Source: a virus. From it: 27,400 nucleotides of DNA. The DNA lies in the IMG/VR virus record IMGVR_UViG_3300004154_000351, positions 1-27,400 of that record; one strand, 5' to 3'. Each line of letters opens with the position of its first letter. The stretch's first letter is position 1. Below, one piece after another: positions 2,681 to 24,945 of this stretch. A program made the position numbers and the translations under genes. The notes beneath the pieces are model-generated. The model saw only the letters and a program-made list of their open reading frames with translations, was not told the origin of the DNA and ran no database searches.

Positions 2681-2878
2681 TTACTGCCCCACCTTTCCGG
2701 TGGACGGGCTGAATCCGTGCGAGGAGAGCCAGCCTTCCATCACATTGGTGATGAAGTTCGAGCGATTGCGGTTGTCCGCCTTGGCGGCCTGTTTAATGCG
2801 ATCCATCAGGTCTTTGCTCATGCTGATGGAGATTTGGGTCATGCCCGCTGCGCGGGCGGTGTTTTTGCGTGTGGTCAT
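2681..2878 (-). CDS. Ribbon-helix-helix DNA-binding protein (Arc/CopG type)
   Basis: 65 residues. A beta strand (MTQISISM, residues 13-20) is followed by helix A (SKDLMDRIKQAAKADN), a turn with NRSN, and helix B (FITNVMEGWLSSHG). This is the standard RHH layout of a dimeric DNA-binding protein. It may regulate the distal early genes or host genes. The 40-bp gap upstream is the largest in this part of the operon. It differs in sequence from the two RHH proteins of the immunity region. Confidence 0.75.
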   Translation of the reverse strand: MTTRKNTARAAGMTQISISMSKDLMDRIKQAAKADNRNRSNFITNVMEGWLSSHGFSPSTGKVGQ

Positions 2879-2918
2879 AGGTTTTGCTGAGGTTGAGTTT
2901 ACTGACGGGGAAAAAGGG

Positions 2919-3503
2919 TTAATGGAGCATTTGGTCTTGGGCGGTCATGTCCAGACCGGCAAGCGAGGGTTGCCGAGTGACAGGGCGCGCCGGCGCGGCT
3001 GGCGGAGCGAGGTTGAGCACCTTGGCCGTGGGAGGCTTTTTCGGCGGGGTGTACGGGCGCCAGCGATTTTGTCGCAGAAGATGCGTTTTAAGGGCGGCCA
3101 GGATGTCGCGCCACTGCATATCCGTCACCTTGGCAAGGAAGTTGCCCGTCATCTGCAGGGCGATACCGTTGAGGTAGTCCTCGCGCTTCGCATTCTCGAT
3201 TTCTAGGCAGTCCAGCAGGTGCTTGGCGTAGAGGGAATGCCGCGCGCGGTCATCGCCGTTGTGCCGATGGGCCACGGCCTTGCCGAAGATGACGAACTGG
3301 AACTCCGCGCGGATGCGGTCAAATTCATCGTTCGTCAGGTCTTTGCTGGAGCGGGCTTCGCCCCACGAGTCCACGACGCCGGCGCGCACATGGAACGCCT
3401 TGCGTTCCTCGTCCGCAAGGATGGAATCCATGCCGTCGGCGATGAGCTTCTTTCTCACCTTGCCCCACATGCTCCAGTAGAATTCTTTTTGTTTGGGTGT
3501 CAT
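2919..3503 (-). CDS. GemA/DUF1018-like early regulatory protein
   Basis: 194 residues. The N-terminus (TPKQKEFYWSMWGKVRK) and the pattern HVRAGVVDSWGEARSSKDLTNDEFDRI resemble the DUF1018 (Mu gp16/GemA) family, where a short helical region is followed by a conserved S-S/T-K-x-L-T/S segment. In Mu, GemA alters host gene expression and supercoiling. The match is from pattern memory and is partial. A basic Pro/Ala-rich tail (about 150-190) is probably disordered. The gene overlaps gam by ATGA (3503-3500), and the Gam-GemA order fits Mu-like early operons. Confidence 0.5.
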   Translation of the reverse strand: MTPKQKEFYWSMWGKVRKKLIADGMDSILADEERKAFHVRAGVVDSWGEARSSKDLTNDEFDRIRAEFQFVIFGKAVAHRHNGDDRARHSLYAKHLLDCLEIENAKREDYLNGIALQMTGNFLAKVTDMQWRDILAALKTHLLRQNRWRPYTPPKKPPTAKVLNLAPPAAPARPVTRQPSLAGLDMTAQDQMLH

Positions 3504-4033
3504 GAGACTTTCGGGTCAGCGCCCGCCTTGGGTTTGATGAAAAACTTTTCGGCCTGTTCGAAGCACAGGCCGCGTTCGGCCAGCCACTGGGCGCGTTCGG
3601 CGGGATCCTCGATTTTATTGGCGGCAGCCATAACCGCGTCCTTCAAAAGCGAGATGACAACCTTCACGAAGTCATCCTCGCCCTTTTCCTTGAGGGCAAG
3701 GGCCACCTCCTCAAAGGATCCTTTGAGCGTCGCAAGTGACGGCGGATCCATGCGGAAGCCGAAAACGGCGGCGGGGCTGTCGGCGGACTTTTTCCCCTCG
3801 GAAAAGAGTTCGTCGGCGTGTCGCGTGGCGAAGGACACTAGGGGGCCTTCCAGCAGCTTCATGCTTGCCTTCAGTTCCTTCACCTTGTCGCCGTAGCGCT
3901 TTTCGATTGCGTTGATGAGGTGTTTTTTGCGCGCCTCCAGCAGTTCGATTTGGACCGCGCAATGCGCGAGCTGGTCCACGCCGTCAAAGAAGGCGTCGCG
4001 GGAGAGTTCGGGAATTTTGATTTTGATGCGCAT
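3500..4033 (-). CDS. gam: Mu Gam-like host-nuclease inhibitor / DNA-end-binding protein
   Basis: 177 residues from the ATG at 4033-4031; an upstream extension in the frame covers the previous gene and is rejected. The family features are a coiled-coil N-terminal half (LEARKKHLINAIEKRYGDKV, about 33-52), a small beta core near GFRMDPPSLATL, and a C-terminal helical part ending FEQAEKFFIKPK. Mu Gam is a Ku-like dimer that coats double-strand ends and blocks exonucleases, protecting phage DNA before transposition. It lies five bases after the 152-aa gene and downstream of the transposition genes, as in Mu-like early operons. Confidence 0.82.
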   Translation of the reverse strand: MRIKIKIPELSRDAFFDGVDQLAHCAVQIELLEARKKHLINAIEKRYGDKVKELKASMKLLEGPLVSFATRHADELFSEGKKSADSPAAVFGFRMDPPSLATLKGSFEEVALALKEKGEDDFVKVVISLLKDAVMAAANKIEDPAERAQWLAERGLCFEQAEKFFIKPKAGADPKVS

Positions 4034-4038
4034 GGTAT

Positions 4039-4497
4039 TTAGATTTCGGAAGTGGGAATCGGTTTGCTGTCCGGGCCGTAGCAGTCTGCCGAGATTTCCG
4101 GGAGGCACCCGCCCGTTGCGGCCGGCCCCTCCTCTTCGATGCCCAGCATTGGCAGCTGCTGGATGGCGCGGGAACGTTGCATGCCCCAAAGGAGGCTTTC
4201 TTCTTCCACAGTTACGTGTAGCTCGCCGTTAGCGGGGAACATCACGTCGGCCAGCAGAATGTCTGCGAGGACGAAGGCGTCCTTATTGTGGGCAAAGGGG
4301 TAGTCGGAAGACTGCCCTCTATTGTTGTATTTGACCGCAGGGAGTCCCTGCGCCTTGCGCGAGGCGGCAAGGGCCTCGAAGAGCGTCGCCTCGGTCACCA
4401 CATAGTGGGTCTTGGCGAAGAAATTCCCCGGTTCGGCCAGCAGCTTGCCGGCCAAAAATAGGACGTTGTTTTGAAAGGTAAAAATATGTGAGATCAT
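4039..4497 (-). CDS. Hypothetical early protein
   Basis: 152 residues, starting at the ATG 4497-4495 that overlaps the stop of the 49-aa gene (ATGA). No known domain is recognised. The N-terminal part alternates hydrophobic and polar residues (ISHIFTFQNNVLFLAGKLL) and looks beta-rich. The centre contains NNRGQSSDYPFAHNKDAFVLADILLAD and the C-terminus is acidic and Pro-rich. There is no membrane segment or signal peptide. It lies between the MuB-like ATPase and Gam and is co-transcribed with them. Confidence 0.7.
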   Translation of the reverse strand: MISHIFTFQNNVLFLAGKLLAEPGNFFAKTHYVVTEATLFEALAASRKAQGLPAVKYNNRGQSSDYPFAHNKDAFVLADILLADVMFPANGELHVTVEEESLLWGMQRSRAIQQLPMLGIEEEGPAATGGCLPEISADCYGPDSKPIPTSEI

Positions 4498-21572: not shown

Positions 21573-22013
21573 ATGGCCTGGATACCCATCACGGAAAATA
21601 ATCTCCTCACCGCCATGAGCGGCGATGAGCTTGCTGGCGTGCGCGCGGCCGCGCTGGCCAACGCCCAAGAGGATCCCGTCGCGCCCTCTATTGCGGCGGT
21701 CATCGGGCAGGTGCGCGGCTATGTGGGCCGCAAGCACACGCTGGGCGCCGGCGCGACCATTCCTGAAAAGCTCTTGGCCACGGCCCTTGATTTGATTGTC
21801 CCGCGCATGCTCAACCGCGTCAATTTGGACATTTCTTCGGGGCGCGTTACGGCGGCGGAGGACGCGAAAAAGACCTTGGATGATGTCGCATCCGGCAGGT
21901 TCAACGTCGAGGAGCCCGAAACCGCGACGCCGGAAGTATCCGCTGGCGTGATCGGCCCGGCCATTTCCGCGCCCAAGCGGCGCTTCACGCGAAAGGACCA
22001 AGATGGAATCTAA
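21573..22013 (+). CDS. Head-tail connector-like protein (DUF1320/Mu gp36-like)
   Basis: 146 residues from the ATG at 21573. It begins MAWIPITENNLLTAMSGDEL, then has a helical bundle (AAVIGQVRGYVGRKHTLGAG, then IPEKLLATALDLIVPRMLNR) and a DISSGRVTAAEDAKKTLDDVASG segment. This pattern is that of DUF1320 connectors in Mu-like phages, which sit between portal and tail. It overlaps the methylase gene by 11 bp. Confidence 0.7.
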   Translation: MAWIPITENNLLTAMSGDELAGVRAAALANAQEDPVAPSIAAVIGQVRGYVGRKHTLGAGATIPEKLLATALDLIVPRMLNRVNLDISSGRVTAAEDAKKTLDDVASGRFNVEEPETATPEVSAGVIGPAISAPKRRFTRKDQDGI

Positions 22014-22797
22014 GACCATAAAAACGGCGTTTCCTTATCCCGGCTGCAAGCGCCGGTTGCTCTCGGACATTTTACCGCATGTCCCGGCGCATCGCATCTA
22101 TGTGGAGGTGTTCGCCGGCAGCGCCGCGCTGCTCTTGGCGAAAGAGCCAAGCGCGCATGAGGTCATCAACGACATCAACGGGGACCTCGTGGCTTTCTTT
22201 CGCTATGTAAAATTTCACGCGCCCGCGCTGATGGCGGAACTGGAGGGATGGCCGAACGCCCGCGAAAACTTCTTATCCATAAAGGCGTCGACACCTCTGA
22301 CCGAACTTCAGCGCGCGGCGCGCTGGTATTTTCTGCAAACCTGCAGCTTTGGCGGCAAGGGGGAAGCCTTTGGCCGCGCGCGCGACCGTTACCACGGCTT
22401 TGACGCCGCACGCCATGGGGCGCTGGTCGCCGCCCTTTCCGCGCGTTTGCGCAAGGTGGTCGTGGAAAATCAGGACTGGGAAGAAATCGTGTCCTTTTAT
22501 GACACGCCCGACACCTTCTTCTTTTTTGACCCGCCCTATCTGGGTTGTTCCAAGACGGCTTACAACGCCTGGGACGCACAGACGATGTGGCGGCTCGCCG
22601 GGGCGGTGCGACGGCTCCAGGGCAAATACCTGCTCACCGTCAATGACTCCGCCCAGACGCGGGAAATTTTCGCCGGCATTCCCTGCCGCGAAATGAGCAT
22701 CCGCTATTCCCTTGCCTCCAACCGCTCCGGAAAAGTTTCGGGCGAACTGCTCATCGGAAACTGCCTGACGGCCGCCGCCGGCCGCCGGGCCGCTTAA
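22003..22797 (+). CDS. DNA adenine N6-methyltransferase (Dam/D12 class)
   Basis: 264 residues. FPYPGCKRR (10-18) is the PGxK-like start of D12 methylases, EVFAGSAAL (35-43) the AdoMet-binding motif, INDING the acidic turn, and DPPY (176-179) the catalytic motif. The order is that of the Dam group, whose usual target is GATC; specificity here is not known. It sits in the head operon rather than the early region. It may methylate phage DNA before packaging, to resist host restriction. Confidence 0.88.
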   Translation: MESKTIKTAFPYPGCKRRLLSDILPHVPAHRIYVEVFAGSAALLLAKEPSAHEVINDINGDLVAFFRYVKFHAPALMAELEGWPNARENFLSIKASTPLTELQRAARWYFLQTCSFGGKGEAFGRARDRYHGFDAARHGALVAALSARLRKVVVENQDWEEIVSFYDTPDTFFFFDPPYLGCSKTAYNAWDAQTMWRLAGAVRRLQGKYLLTVNDSAQTREIFAGIPCREMSIRYSLASNRSGKVSGELLIGNCLTAAAGRRAA

Positions 22798-22800
22798 ACC

Positions 22801-24150
22801 ATGGTCGCCAAACTCACAGCGCAGGAATTCTTCGGCCAGAAAGTCCAAATTCCGACCGACTTGCTCACCAAGCAAATGTCGCTGCTGGAGCTTGGCCTGC
22901 GCGAGCGCGCGTTTTGGTCGGCGGGGGTGGAAGACGCCCGATTGCTGGCGGACCTGCAGCGCGCGGTGGACGGCGCGGTGCAGGGAGGCGCTCACGCCTC
23001 CGGGCGCGCCGCCATCACCGCCGCCCTGGACAAGTGGGGTTACAAACCGGCAATGGGCACCGAAGGCACCATAAAGGATTTGCGCTCGCGCCAGCGGATG
23101 GATGTCATCCTGCAGGTCAATGAGCAGATGGCGCAAGGATATACCCAGCTGCAGCGCGCGCAGGACGCGCTTGAAAATTATCCATGTTGGGAATTTGTGC
23201 GCGTGGAGGCCCGCGATCGCCCCCGGCTGGACTGGGAGGACCGCTGGAAAAGAGCCGGTGGTCATTTCTTTGCCGGTGGACGCATGATCGCACTCATCAA
23301 TGACCCCGTCTGGCAACGTCTTTCGGTGTTTCGCACGCCCTATCCGCCCTTTGACTACAACTCGGGCATGGGTGTTGAGCCGGTCGACCGCGATGAGGCC
23401 GTCCGCTTGAGCGTCATCGCGCCGAAGGAAATCTTGGAGCGCGCCCCGGAGCAATCCTTCAACCAAAATCTCGAAACCCATCTGGATGCCAGCGAGGCCG
23501 TCTGGCAGGGCGTGCTTGACCACTTTCAAGGCACGGCCGAGCGCGTGGGCGACAAGTTGATATTTACCGACGCGAACGGCACAAAGCCGTATGACGCTCA
23601 AAAGATTGTCGATGTCATCAGCGCACCGCTACCCAACATCTACGGAAAAGGCGTGAATCCCAATTTCCAGATGGAGGGTATTATACAATGGGCGGACGAC
23701 AGTTCGGGTTTCAAGGCGCATCCGGGGCGGGATATGCCTCAACACATGCGTCGACTGGCTGACCGCATTATCCCACAGACTTTCGACGTCCTTTATCGCG
23801 GCATGGAATTCGACAACTGGGAGGCGCGCGAAAAGTTCCTTATGGATATGTCGGAGGCTTCCGGCCACCGCGTGAAGGACTTTTATGAGTCATTTTCAAA
23901 AAACCTAAAAACGGGACTGTTCTTCGCGGGCGCAACCAAGCCAAAGGTGGAATTTGGCGTAGTGATCAAGCTGCTCAACAGCAAGAGCGGCCATGATATT
24001 TCCCATGCGGTTGCAAAATATGCCCCGCGCCTTGCGCATGAAGAGGAAGTCGTGTTCTCGCGCGGCAGTCACTTCAAAGAAAAATCCCGTCGGACGATTG
24101 TCCAAAACGGGAAGAAGCTGCTGGAGATAACTGTGGAGGAAAAAAAATGA
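22801..24150 (+). CDS. Mu gpF-like head morphogenesis protein fused to an ADP-ribosyltransferase-like domain
   Basis: 449 residues. The first part (about 1-215) is the head-morphogenesis (Mu F / SPP1 gp7) domain: ERAFWSAGVEDARLLADLQ, TEGTIKDLRSRQRMDVILQVN, RPRLDWEDRWKRAGG and TPYPPFDYNSGMGVEPVDRDEA. The C-terminal part (about 315-449) has the order of R-S-E mono-ADP-ribosyltransferases: VLYRGM (R333), FYESFSKN (S364-F-S366), and HEEEVVFSRGSHF (E414-x-E416). The EVVFSRGSxF segment matches the E-x-E-hydrophobic-x-R-G-S/T-x-F signature. It may be carried in the virion and act on a host protein after entry. Target unknown. Confidence 0.85.
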   Translation: MVAKLTAQEFFGQKVQIPTDLLTKQMSLLELGLRERAFWSAGVEDARLLADLQRAVDGAVQGGAHASGRAAITAALDKWGYKPAMGTEGTIKDLRSRQRMDVILQVNEQMAQGYTQLQRAQDALENYPCWEFVRVEARDRPRLDWEDRWKRAGGHFFAGGRMIALINDPVWQRLSVFRTPYPPFDYNSGMGVEPVDRDEAVRLSVIAPKEILERAPEQSFNQNLETHLDASEAVWQGVLDHFQGTAERVGDKLIFTDANGTKPYDAQKIVDVISAPLPNIYGKGVNPNFQMEGIIQWADDSSGFKAHPGRDMPQHMRRLADRIIPQTFDVLYRGMEFDNWEAREKFLMDMSEASGHRVKDFYESFSKNLKTGLFFAGATKPKVEFGVVIKLLNSKSGHDISHAVAKYAPRLAHEEEVVFSRGSHFKEKSRRTIVQNGKKLLEITVEEKK

Positions 24151-24152
24151 TC

Positions 24153-24317
24153 CTACTTTTCAGTTGTCCAGTTGACGGGCGTAGACCGCGAACGGAAGTG
24201 TCTGCGGTCCTTTTCCTCCTGCGTGAGTTTGGGCTTCGGCTGCACGGGATGCTCCCAGCCCCATTCTTCGCGGATGGAGCCGTCCTTGCGCTTAAAGACT
24301 TTCTTAACGACTGGCAT
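24153..24317 (-). CDS. Small basic protein, 54 aa, antisense cargo gene in the late operon
   Basis: On the minus strand, from the ATG at 24317, the ORF reads MPVVKKVFKRKDGSIREEWG and continues as a Lys/Arg/Glu-rich peptide (KPKLTQEEKDRRHFRSRS). An exact TTGACA (24352-24347), a 17-bp spacer and TATATT (24329-24324) precede it. The gene fills most of the 225-bp gap between the gpF fusion and the gpG-like gene. A strong private promoter and opposite orientation suggest expression in the lysogen. Function unknown. A relation to the neighbouring ADP-ribosyltransferase-like domain is possible but unproven. Confidence 0.65.
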   Translation of the reverse strand: MPVVKKVFKRKDGSIREEWGWEHPVQPKPKLTQEEKDRRHFRSRSTPVNWTTEK

Positions 24318-24323
24318 ACCGGA

Positions 24324-24352
24324 AATATATGCCCGCCGCCCGCCTTTGTCAA
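24324..24352 (-). promoter_or_regulatory. Near-consensus sigma-70 promoter driving the antisense 54-aa gene
   Basis: TTGACA (24352-24347) and TATATT (24329-24324, five of six matches) are separated by exactly 17 bp on the minus strand. Only six bases separate the -10 from the ATG at 24317, so the transcript is expected to be leaderless. The GC-rich spacer stands out from the AT-rich -10. Confidence 0.75.
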
Positions 24353-24375
24353 CCCCGCTCCCGGAGGGTCTCGCC

Positions 24376-24945
24376 ATGGGTAAACTCGTGGAAATCGGCG
24401 GTGACGCCATGCCCAATATCCGCGCCATGGTCAAAAAGGCCGGGCAGTTGCCGCGCCTGATGACCAACATGGCCATGGGCGTTGAAACTCTCTTTAAACG
24501 GCATTTCAGGGGCCAGAAAAGCATCAAGAATAAGCTAGGGGGGAAGTCCACCGGCTTCTGGGCGCGCGCCGCGCGCAACACAGCGGCCTATGCCGGGCAC
24601 GCCGGCATTGAGGTGCCTGAACCCGCCAAGGGCGTCGCCCTGCAGGTGTTCGGCGGCACGGTGACCGCGCGCGCAAAGTCGGCCCTGACCATCCCGATCA
24701 GCCCGCTCGCCCACGGCCGCAGCACACAGGAGGCAGACTTCAAAGACCGCCTCTTCAAACTCAAATCGAAAAAGGGCAACACCATCTTAGCAATGAAGGG
24801 CTCCGGGGACGACATCATCCCGATGTTTGTGCTGAAAAAATCCGCAACCATCCGCGGCAACCGGCAGCTGATGCCCTCGGATGAGGCCATCACCGATCAG
24901 ATCGGCAAAGAGATCGACCGCTACTTCGCCTTCACCTTGTCATGA
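24376..24945 (+). CDS. Phage virion morphogenesis protein (Mu gpG-like)
   Basis: 189 residues from the ATG at 24376, preceded by GGAGG eight bases upstream. The N-terminal helix (NIRAMVKKAGQLPRLMTNMAMG) and the following FKRHFRGQKSIKNKLGGKSTGFW, then KSALTIPISPLAHGRSTQEAD and ILAMKGSGDDIIPMFVLKKSATI, resemble gpG/virion-morphogenesis proteins with a basic N-terminus and beta C-terminus. It probably completes the head-tail joint or tail. It overlaps the next gene by ATGA (24942-24945). Confidence 0.7.
   Translation: MGKLVEIGGDAMPNIRAMVKKAGQLPRLMTNMAMGVETLFKRHFRGQKSIKNKLGGKSTGFWARAARNTAAYAGHAGIEVPEPAKGVALQVFGGTVTARAKSALTIPISPLAHGRSTQEADFKDRLFKLKSKKGNTILAMKGSGDDIIPMFVLKKSATIRGNRQLMPSDEAITDQIGKEIDRYFAFTLS

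What the first reader, a model, noticed from the sequence alone, without database searches (positions are those of the whole stretch)
24153..24352. Antisense cargo gene with a near-perfect promoter and leaderless start inside the late operon
A 54-aa basic protein is encoded on the minus strand between the gpF-ART fusion and gpG. It has TTGACA-17 bp-TATATT and an ATG only six bases after the -10. In a region otherwise transcribed rightward by late control this is the hallmark of a moron expressed from the prophage. Its position directly beside a possible toxin domain makes an immunity or regulatory role worth testing. Leftward transcription would also run antisense into the 3' end of the toxin-like domain.
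Basis: partly seen in the sequence, partly recalled or inferred. Interest (0 to 1): 0.75.

Follow-up and report, generated by a model that had tools for sequence, protein, structure and literature searches.

The report
Antisense immunity-like gene for phage toxin
A tiny gene, read backwards inside a bacterial virus's head-building genes, sits tail-to-tail with a toxin-like enzyme domain and has its own strong switch; related viruses repeat this layout with unrelated small proteins, which suggests it is an antidote that stays on while the virus sleeps in its host.

Summary
The 54-codon minus-strand frame, TTGACA-17-TATATT box and ATG six bases after the -10 are exactly there and beyond chance. 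Codon usage supports it as coding and rejects the overlapping plus-strand frame. ORF54's sequence is an orphan: no relative was found. Its architecture is not. Related gpF (MuF) proteins of Verrucomicrobiota phages carry varied C-terminal domains. In 11 of 18 ADP-ribosyltransferase (ART) loci reached without using the antisense profile, a small minus-strand frame lies tail-to-tail with the ART frame behind a leaderless-type promoter; 1 of 138 non-ART gpF loci scores as high. Six ART lineages do this with unrelated proteins; the Akkermansiaceae family also occurs as ART-antisense pairs without gpF, with dN/dS 0.16-0.51 where computable. The window domain is an ART by motif and predicted fold. 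Best reading: a MuF-type polymorphic toxin whose candidate immunity gene is antisense, leaderless and driven by its own sigma70-type promoter, so it could be made in the lysogen while late genes are off (compare colicin B/M immunity genes). MuF toxins, MuF-ART fusions and adjacent immunity proteins are known; I found no report of the antisense leaderless arrangement. Neutralisation, transcription and leaderlessness are inferred, not shown.

The parts
24153..24317 (-). ORF54: 54-aa basic protein, candidate immunity gene; stop codon 2 bases from the gpF-ART stop, convergent
24347..24352 (-). -35 box TTGACA
24324..24329 (-). -10 box TATATT; spacer 17; six bases to the ATG, so predicted +1 is at or next to the A of ATG (leaderless, inferred)
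22801..24150 (+). gpF / MuF-type minor head protein (449 aa) with C-terminal ART domain
   Evidence: PHROG 220 minor head protein and DNA pilot, E 7.9e-8; alignment with 13 phage relatives
23536..24147 (+). linker and ADP-ribosyltransferase domain (RG, ESFS, EEE motif line-up)
   Evidence: AF2 model pLDDT 68, ART folds on top
24376..24945 (+). gpG-like gene; in most relatives with a short gpF its start overlaps or nearly touches the gpF stop
   Evidence: iterative profile
24147..24383 (+). rejected rival frame (78 aa) with GGAGG and ATGA overlap; the GGAGG lies in codons for the ART C-terminal VEE, a tail shared by several ARTs
   Evidence: codon score -13.5; ART C-termini
24090..24105 (-). 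weak terminator-like hairpin about 48 bases past the ORF54 stop
   Evidence: 13 such sites found, 8.6 expected by chance
22003..22797 (+). D12 class adenine DNA methyltransferase between the gp36-like adaptor and gpF (neighbouring gene)

Best explanation
The locus is a MuF-type polymorphic toxin module in a Mu-like phage of Verrucomicrobiota. gpF carries a C-terminal ADP-ribosyltransferase, presumably packed in the head and delivered to the next cell. ORF54 is the candidate cognate immunity gene. Unlike the usual downstream sense gene it is convergent, antisense and leaderless, driven by its own sigma70-type promoter, so the lysogen can make it while the late operon is silent. It would protect the lysogen (and sister lysogens hit by the same particles) from leaky or injected ART; leftward transcription may also damp the ART message. 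Shown: the anatomy, the ART assignment, the recurrence with ART, purifying selection on the antisense frames of relatives. Inferred: transcription, true leaderlessness, toxicity, neutralisation, head delivery.
For: ART by motif and fold. Antisense convergent frame with promoter score at least 9: 11 of 18 ART loci not fetched through the antisense profile versus 1 of 138 non-ART gpF loci (Fisher 1.6e-11); 6 of 11 lineages (2.3e-7); shuffles of 13 of these loci predict 0.06 such loci in all. A TTG lies 34-36 bases from the start in 18 of 20 antisense genes listed. The Akkermansiaceae antisense family is tail-to-tail with an ART profile hit in 11 of 20 copies, some without gpF. dN/dS 0.16-0.51 in the 7 of 12 pairs with computable dS. 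Precedent: MuF toxins followed by a small ORF in 89.4% of 191 (PMC5576092, passages); Bxa, a MuF-ART toxin neutralised by two adjacent proteins (PMC11699363, passages); colicin B/M immunity genes on the opposite strand under their own promoter (PMC8469651, passage).
Against: ORF54 has no detected homologue, so it is not itself shown to be conserved. It does not match the Akkermansiaceae family (hhalign probability 0.2). 6 of 20 copies of that family have no ART beside them. Four ART loci (L048, L033, L210, L211) have a sense small frame instead. L208 has an antisense frame but no good promoter. Start codons of some relatives were chosen by best promoter score. Nothing shows toxicity or binding.
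Confidence: 0.6

Rival explanations
1. The antisense gene is a regulator or silencer: its transcript, or a small basic protein, represses leaky gpF-ART or late-operon expression in the prophage; no direct toxin neutralisation.
For: Leftward transcription faces the ART message and the promoter sits just upstream of gpG. The proteins are mostly small and basic. In L208, L209, L215 and L197 the antisense frame overlaps the ART 3' end.
Against: Protein-level purifying selection argues against an RNA-only device; ART-antisense pairs also occur without gpF; the link is with ART, not with gpF in general.
Confidence: 0.2
2. A generic lysogenic-conversion moron (own promoter, unrelated role) that happens to sit at a cargo hot spot.
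For: The gap is a general insertion site: genes of other kinds lie there on either strand; L141, with a metallopeptidase-like tail, also has a leaderless-type antisense gene.
Against: The strong association with ART and ART-antisense pairs outside gpF.
Confidence: 0.14
3. Chance frame and chance promoter; the gap is non-coding or encodes the plus-strand 78-aa frame.
For: ORF54 sequence is orphan; the plus frame has GGAGG and an ATGA overlap.
Against: Promoter odds, codon scores, recurrence of the layout; the GGAGG is explained by the ART C-terminal codons.
Confidence: 0.06

Closest known systems
MuF polymorphic toxins of temperate phages (Jamet et al. 2017, PMC5576092; abstract, outline and passages seen)
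   Same: MuF/gpF head protein with a C-terminal toxin domain (ART among the known kinds) and a small gene right behind it; short MuF mostly lacks the small gene
   Different: Here the small gene is convergent, antisense and has its own leaderless-type promoter; the words antisense, opposite, promoter and Verrucomicrobia do not occur in that main text
Bxa with BAH and Bsi, Bacteroides stercoris prophage (PMC11699363; abstract and passages seen)
   Same: MuF-ART toxin with adjacent immunity genes; Bsi blocks the enzyme by binding
   Different: No ADP-ribosyl hydrolase was seen beside the window ART; gene orientation in Bxa was not stated in the passages I saw; no sequence comparison made
Colicin B and M immunity genes cbi and cmi (PMC8469651; passages seen)
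   Same: Immunity gene on the opposite strand from the toxin, under its own promoter
   Different: Plasmid bacteriocins; Cmi is a membrane-anchored periplasmic protein; no sequence relation tested
[quoted passage not shown] passages seen)
   Same: MuF-ART fusion predicted to be packed in the head
   Different: The passages seen do not describe antisense partners

Membership tests
MuF polymorphic toxin | N-terminal MuF/gpF head protein encoded in the packaging/head module | tested here: met
   PHROG 220 E 7.9e-8; neighbours Mu portal, Mu I protein, Mu gp36-like, terminase
MuF polymorphic toxin | C-terminal toxin domain that varies between relatives | tested here: met
   ART here; other relatives end at ~270 aa or carry other tails
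MuF polymorphic toxin | Small gene (<150 aa) adjacent to the toxin gene | tested here: met
   ORF54, but antisense
MuF polymorphic toxin | Temperate phage | tested here: inconclusive
   Mu-like head genes and an AAA_22/HTH protein on the left arm; no integration site examined
MuF polymorphic toxin | Toxicity and neutralisation by the neighbour | not testable with these tools
   needs expression
ADP-ribosyltransferase (R-S-E type) | RG / S-x-S / ExE motifs and ART fold | tested here: met
   YRG, ESFS, EEE (motif names recalled); HopU1 Z 10.9 over 108 residues, ART toxin of 6drh Z 9.5 over 97. Window protein itself below Pfam cut-offs; one of six A3 members hits PF03496 and PF01129
Opposite-strand immunity arrangement (as in colicin B/M) | Convergent gene with its own promoter | tested here: met
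   arrangement only, not a colicin
Akkermansiaceae antisense family (profile A2) | Sequence match to the profile | tested here: not met
   hhalign probability 0.2, hmmsearch 2.5 bits
Type I toxin-antitoxin (antisense RNA) | Antisense RNA, not protein, is the antidote | tested here: inconclusive
   protein selection in relatives; no RNA data

The most novel reading that the evidence does not exclude
Phages of the phylum Verrucomicrobiota have repeatedly put the immunity gene of a head-borne ART toxin on the opposite strand under a leaderless sigma70-type promoter, with unrelated immunity proteins in at least six lineages, which uncouples immunity (prophage state) from toxin (late lytic state); in Akkermansiaceae the ART-antisense pair also travels without the head gene.
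Probability: 0.5. Interest if true: 0.75.

Novelty: new variant of a known kind. Interest (0 to 1): 0.62.

Why it matters
How and when MuF toxins act is open: do particles carry them to kill or tune the next host, and how are lysogens spared? An immunity gene wired to be on in the lysogen and off the late operon predicts that the threat is an incoming or leaky toxin, which is directly testable. The layout also gives a way to spot immunity genes that 'next downstream gene' searches miss, including very short orphans such as ORF54.

Tried and rejected
Homologues of ORF54: none with E <= 1e-3 by octapeptide scans of viral contigs and genome contigs; tblastn in phages only E 5 or worse; 0 of 14 related viral records; nothing credible in 160 loci; 1 of 387 phylum genomes at E 0.005 (L223), an out-of-context overlap frame with no ART or gpF, rejected as chance. 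Family scans of ORF54 weak only: PF10902 E 0.02 below cut-off, PHROGs E 0.2; NCBIfam and PADLOC none. A scan of viral contigs with the window's ART tail alone found no relative, and one with the antisense family none.

Considered and dropped: the plus-strand 78-aa frame. L218, L220 and L038 were dropped as ART because they match only the linker, not the ART core. My idea that ARTs that lost ExE also lost the small gene rests on two cases (L219; L049 minus 2872-4057), too few to claim. No ART-like tail or antisense gene was seen by eye behind gpF in the Akkermansia phages DTMo-2021a and Chambord. Antisense-family model: four helices, pLDDT 71.5, pTM 0.36, not informative. A blend query of the family found nothing in phages.

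Limits of the counts: the promoter score and its threshold were set after seeing the first cases; relatives are not independent, hence the lineage count. One search gave 14 of 27 ART rows before I removed loci reached only through the antisense profile (L167, L177, L187, L186, L188) and linker-only rows (L017 N-terminal piece, L038, L218, L220); one search uses the remaining 18. The Fisher values printed (11 of 13; 6 of 9) used a narrower hand-picked set and are superseded. Loci with less than 330 bases behind gpF were left out.

Full report
What is there. The window is a 27.4-kb virus record. Its plus-strand late genes are Mu-like: terminase, Mu portal (PF06074 E 3e-41), Mu I protein (PF10123 E 1e-30), capsid, gp36-like adaptor, a D12 DNA methyltransferase, gpF, gpG (gpG by iterative profile). 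Named gpF relatives come almost entirely from Verrucomicrobiota in the wide sense (Opitutaceae, Akkermansiaceae, Kiritimatiellae, Puniceicoccales, Spartobacteria; single loci are labelled Fibrobacter and Lentisphaerae). Its stop codon lies two bases from that of gpF.

The rival frame. A 78-aa plus-strand frame starts on the gpF stop (ATGA) behind GGAGG, which looks like a coupled late gene. Its codon score is that of a wrong frame (-13.5), and the GGAGG is part of the codons for the C-terminal VEE of the ART domain, a tail that recurs in other ARTs.

gpF carries an ADP-ribosyltransferase. Residues 246-449 align with tails of gpF from Akkermansiaceae and others, with a shared linker (TDPNGT..PY), then RG, S-x-S-like and ExE positions. 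Pfam does not reach the window protein; one of six aligned members hits ADPrib_exo_Tox (2.3e-8) and ART (1.8e-7). The AF2 model from six sequences is moderate (pLDDT 68, pTM 0.61), but 42 PDB chains match at E <= 1e-3, nearly all of them ART toxins or anthrax lethal factor, whose matched part has an ART-like fold (recalled), and the second look gives HopU1 Z 10.9 and an ART toxin from a toxin/immunity pair (6drh) Z 9.5. The match is to the fold; the target is unknown.

A cargo site. With 111 loci in which gpG could be found (106 de-duplicated), short gpF is followed at once by gpG (gap 30 bases or less in 54 of 68), long gpF often is not (15 of 38; gaps of 80-400 bases in 18 of 38). This repeats in this phylum what Jamet et al. 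reported for MuF toxins (PMC5576092, passages seen: 89.4% of 191 MuF toxin genes followed by a small ORF, 25.5% of 952 short ones).

The antisense layout recurs with ART. Four Akkermansiaceae loci with ART tails carry, directly behind the ART stop and on the opposite strand, members of one small basic family. A profile of that family found it in 14 of 260 genomes of the taxonomic family and 4 of 387 of the phylum sample. Of 20 copies examined, 11 are tail-to-tail with an ART profile hit (7 of these in loci with gpF, 4 without a gpF hit in the stretch), 2 (L195) end against ART-tail-like frames by eye only, 1 is cut by a contig end, 6 have no ART. An ART search (5 of 372 order genomes, 9 of 387 phylum genomes) gave further lineages with unrelated antisense frames: L215, L216/L217, L208/L209; L160 came from the gpF search. 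L048 and L033/L210 have a sense small gene and L211 a sense small frame; L219, whose ExE is lost, has none.

Counting it. I scored minus-strand frames of 38-110 aa whose stop lies -40 to +25 bases from the gpF/ART stop and whose start has a -35/-10 pair at leaderless distance. Using 18 ART-core loci reached through gpF or ART searches only, 11 score at least 9; of 138 non-ART gpF loci, one does (L141, a metallopeptidase-like tail by eye): Fisher 1.6e-11; by lineage 6 of 11, 2.3e-7. Shuffling the downstream DNA of 13 of these 18 loci predicts 0.06 such loci. The upstream sequences put a TTG 34-36 bases before the start in 18 of 20; for L209 the script used a wrong start, and with the GTG start the distance is 35; L208 does not fit. 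Start choice by best score helps some lineages (L160, L215, L216, L217); in the Akkermansiaceae family the start is fixed by homology.

Protein, not only RNA. In the antisense families dN/dS is 0.16-0.51 for the pairs with computable dS (7 of 12 pairs tried gave a value in that range; the rest were saturated at silent sites); substitutions pile up at codon position 3 in most pairs. The closest pair (L216/L217) gives 0.44 on only 15 substitutions. ORF54 has no relative to test.

How it most likely works (inferred). The ART is made late and packed with gpF; MuF-ART fusions are predicted to be head-packaged and injected (PMC9503650, passages), and the Bxa MuF-ART kills E. coli and is neutralised by two adjacent proteins (PMC11699363, passages). 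ORF54, under a near-consensus promoter on the other strand, would be made in the lysogen when late genes are silent, as colicin B/M immunity genes are transcribed from the opposite strand under their own promoter (PMC8469651, passage). A leaderless start lets a promoter and a gene fit in the 225 bases between gpF and gpG. Convergent transcription may also restrain ART expression. None of these steps is shown here.

Known or new. MuF toxins, MuF-ART fusions and adjacent immunity proteins are known. I therefore rate it a new variant of a known kind.

Noticed in passing
window 22003-22797: A D12 class adenine methyltransferase gene lies between the gp36-like adaptor and gpF; a viral-contig scan with it gave only one relative (L016).
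   Followed up: no
L002 6146-6331, L005 6170-6280, L068 6182-6319: gpF with another (nuclease-like, judged by eye) C-terminal tail is followed by a sense small ORF with similar N-termini (M-x-x-AK-x-x-I-x-x-x-L): a possible second partner family.
   Followed up: no
L141 6362-6496 minus: A 44-aa basic leaderless-type antisense gene (TTGATT-17-TAGCTT-6-ATG) behind a gpF with a metallopeptidase-like tail: the layout may not be limited to ART.
   Followed up: partly
L192 3718-4323 and 7518-8362: Two ART-antisense pairs without a gpF hit, about 3.8 kb apart on one Akkermansiaceae contig, like orphan toxin-immunity cassettes; in the first the ART arginine motif looks lost.
   Followed up: partly
L198, L199, L200, L201 (Akkermansiaceae): Relatives of the antisense family without ART next to them, one near a YidC-like gene (by eye) and without a clear promoter: orphan immunity genes or a wider small-protein family.
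   Followed up: no
L033 1567-1782 and L210 966-1208: ART frames followed by a conserved sense small protein (GHAPMxGSTMPGFMFIYE...EKYGYxGP): another candidate partner family.
   Followed up: no
L017 1048-2460: gpF-ART is split by a stop into two frames while the antisense gene stays intact.
   Followed up: no
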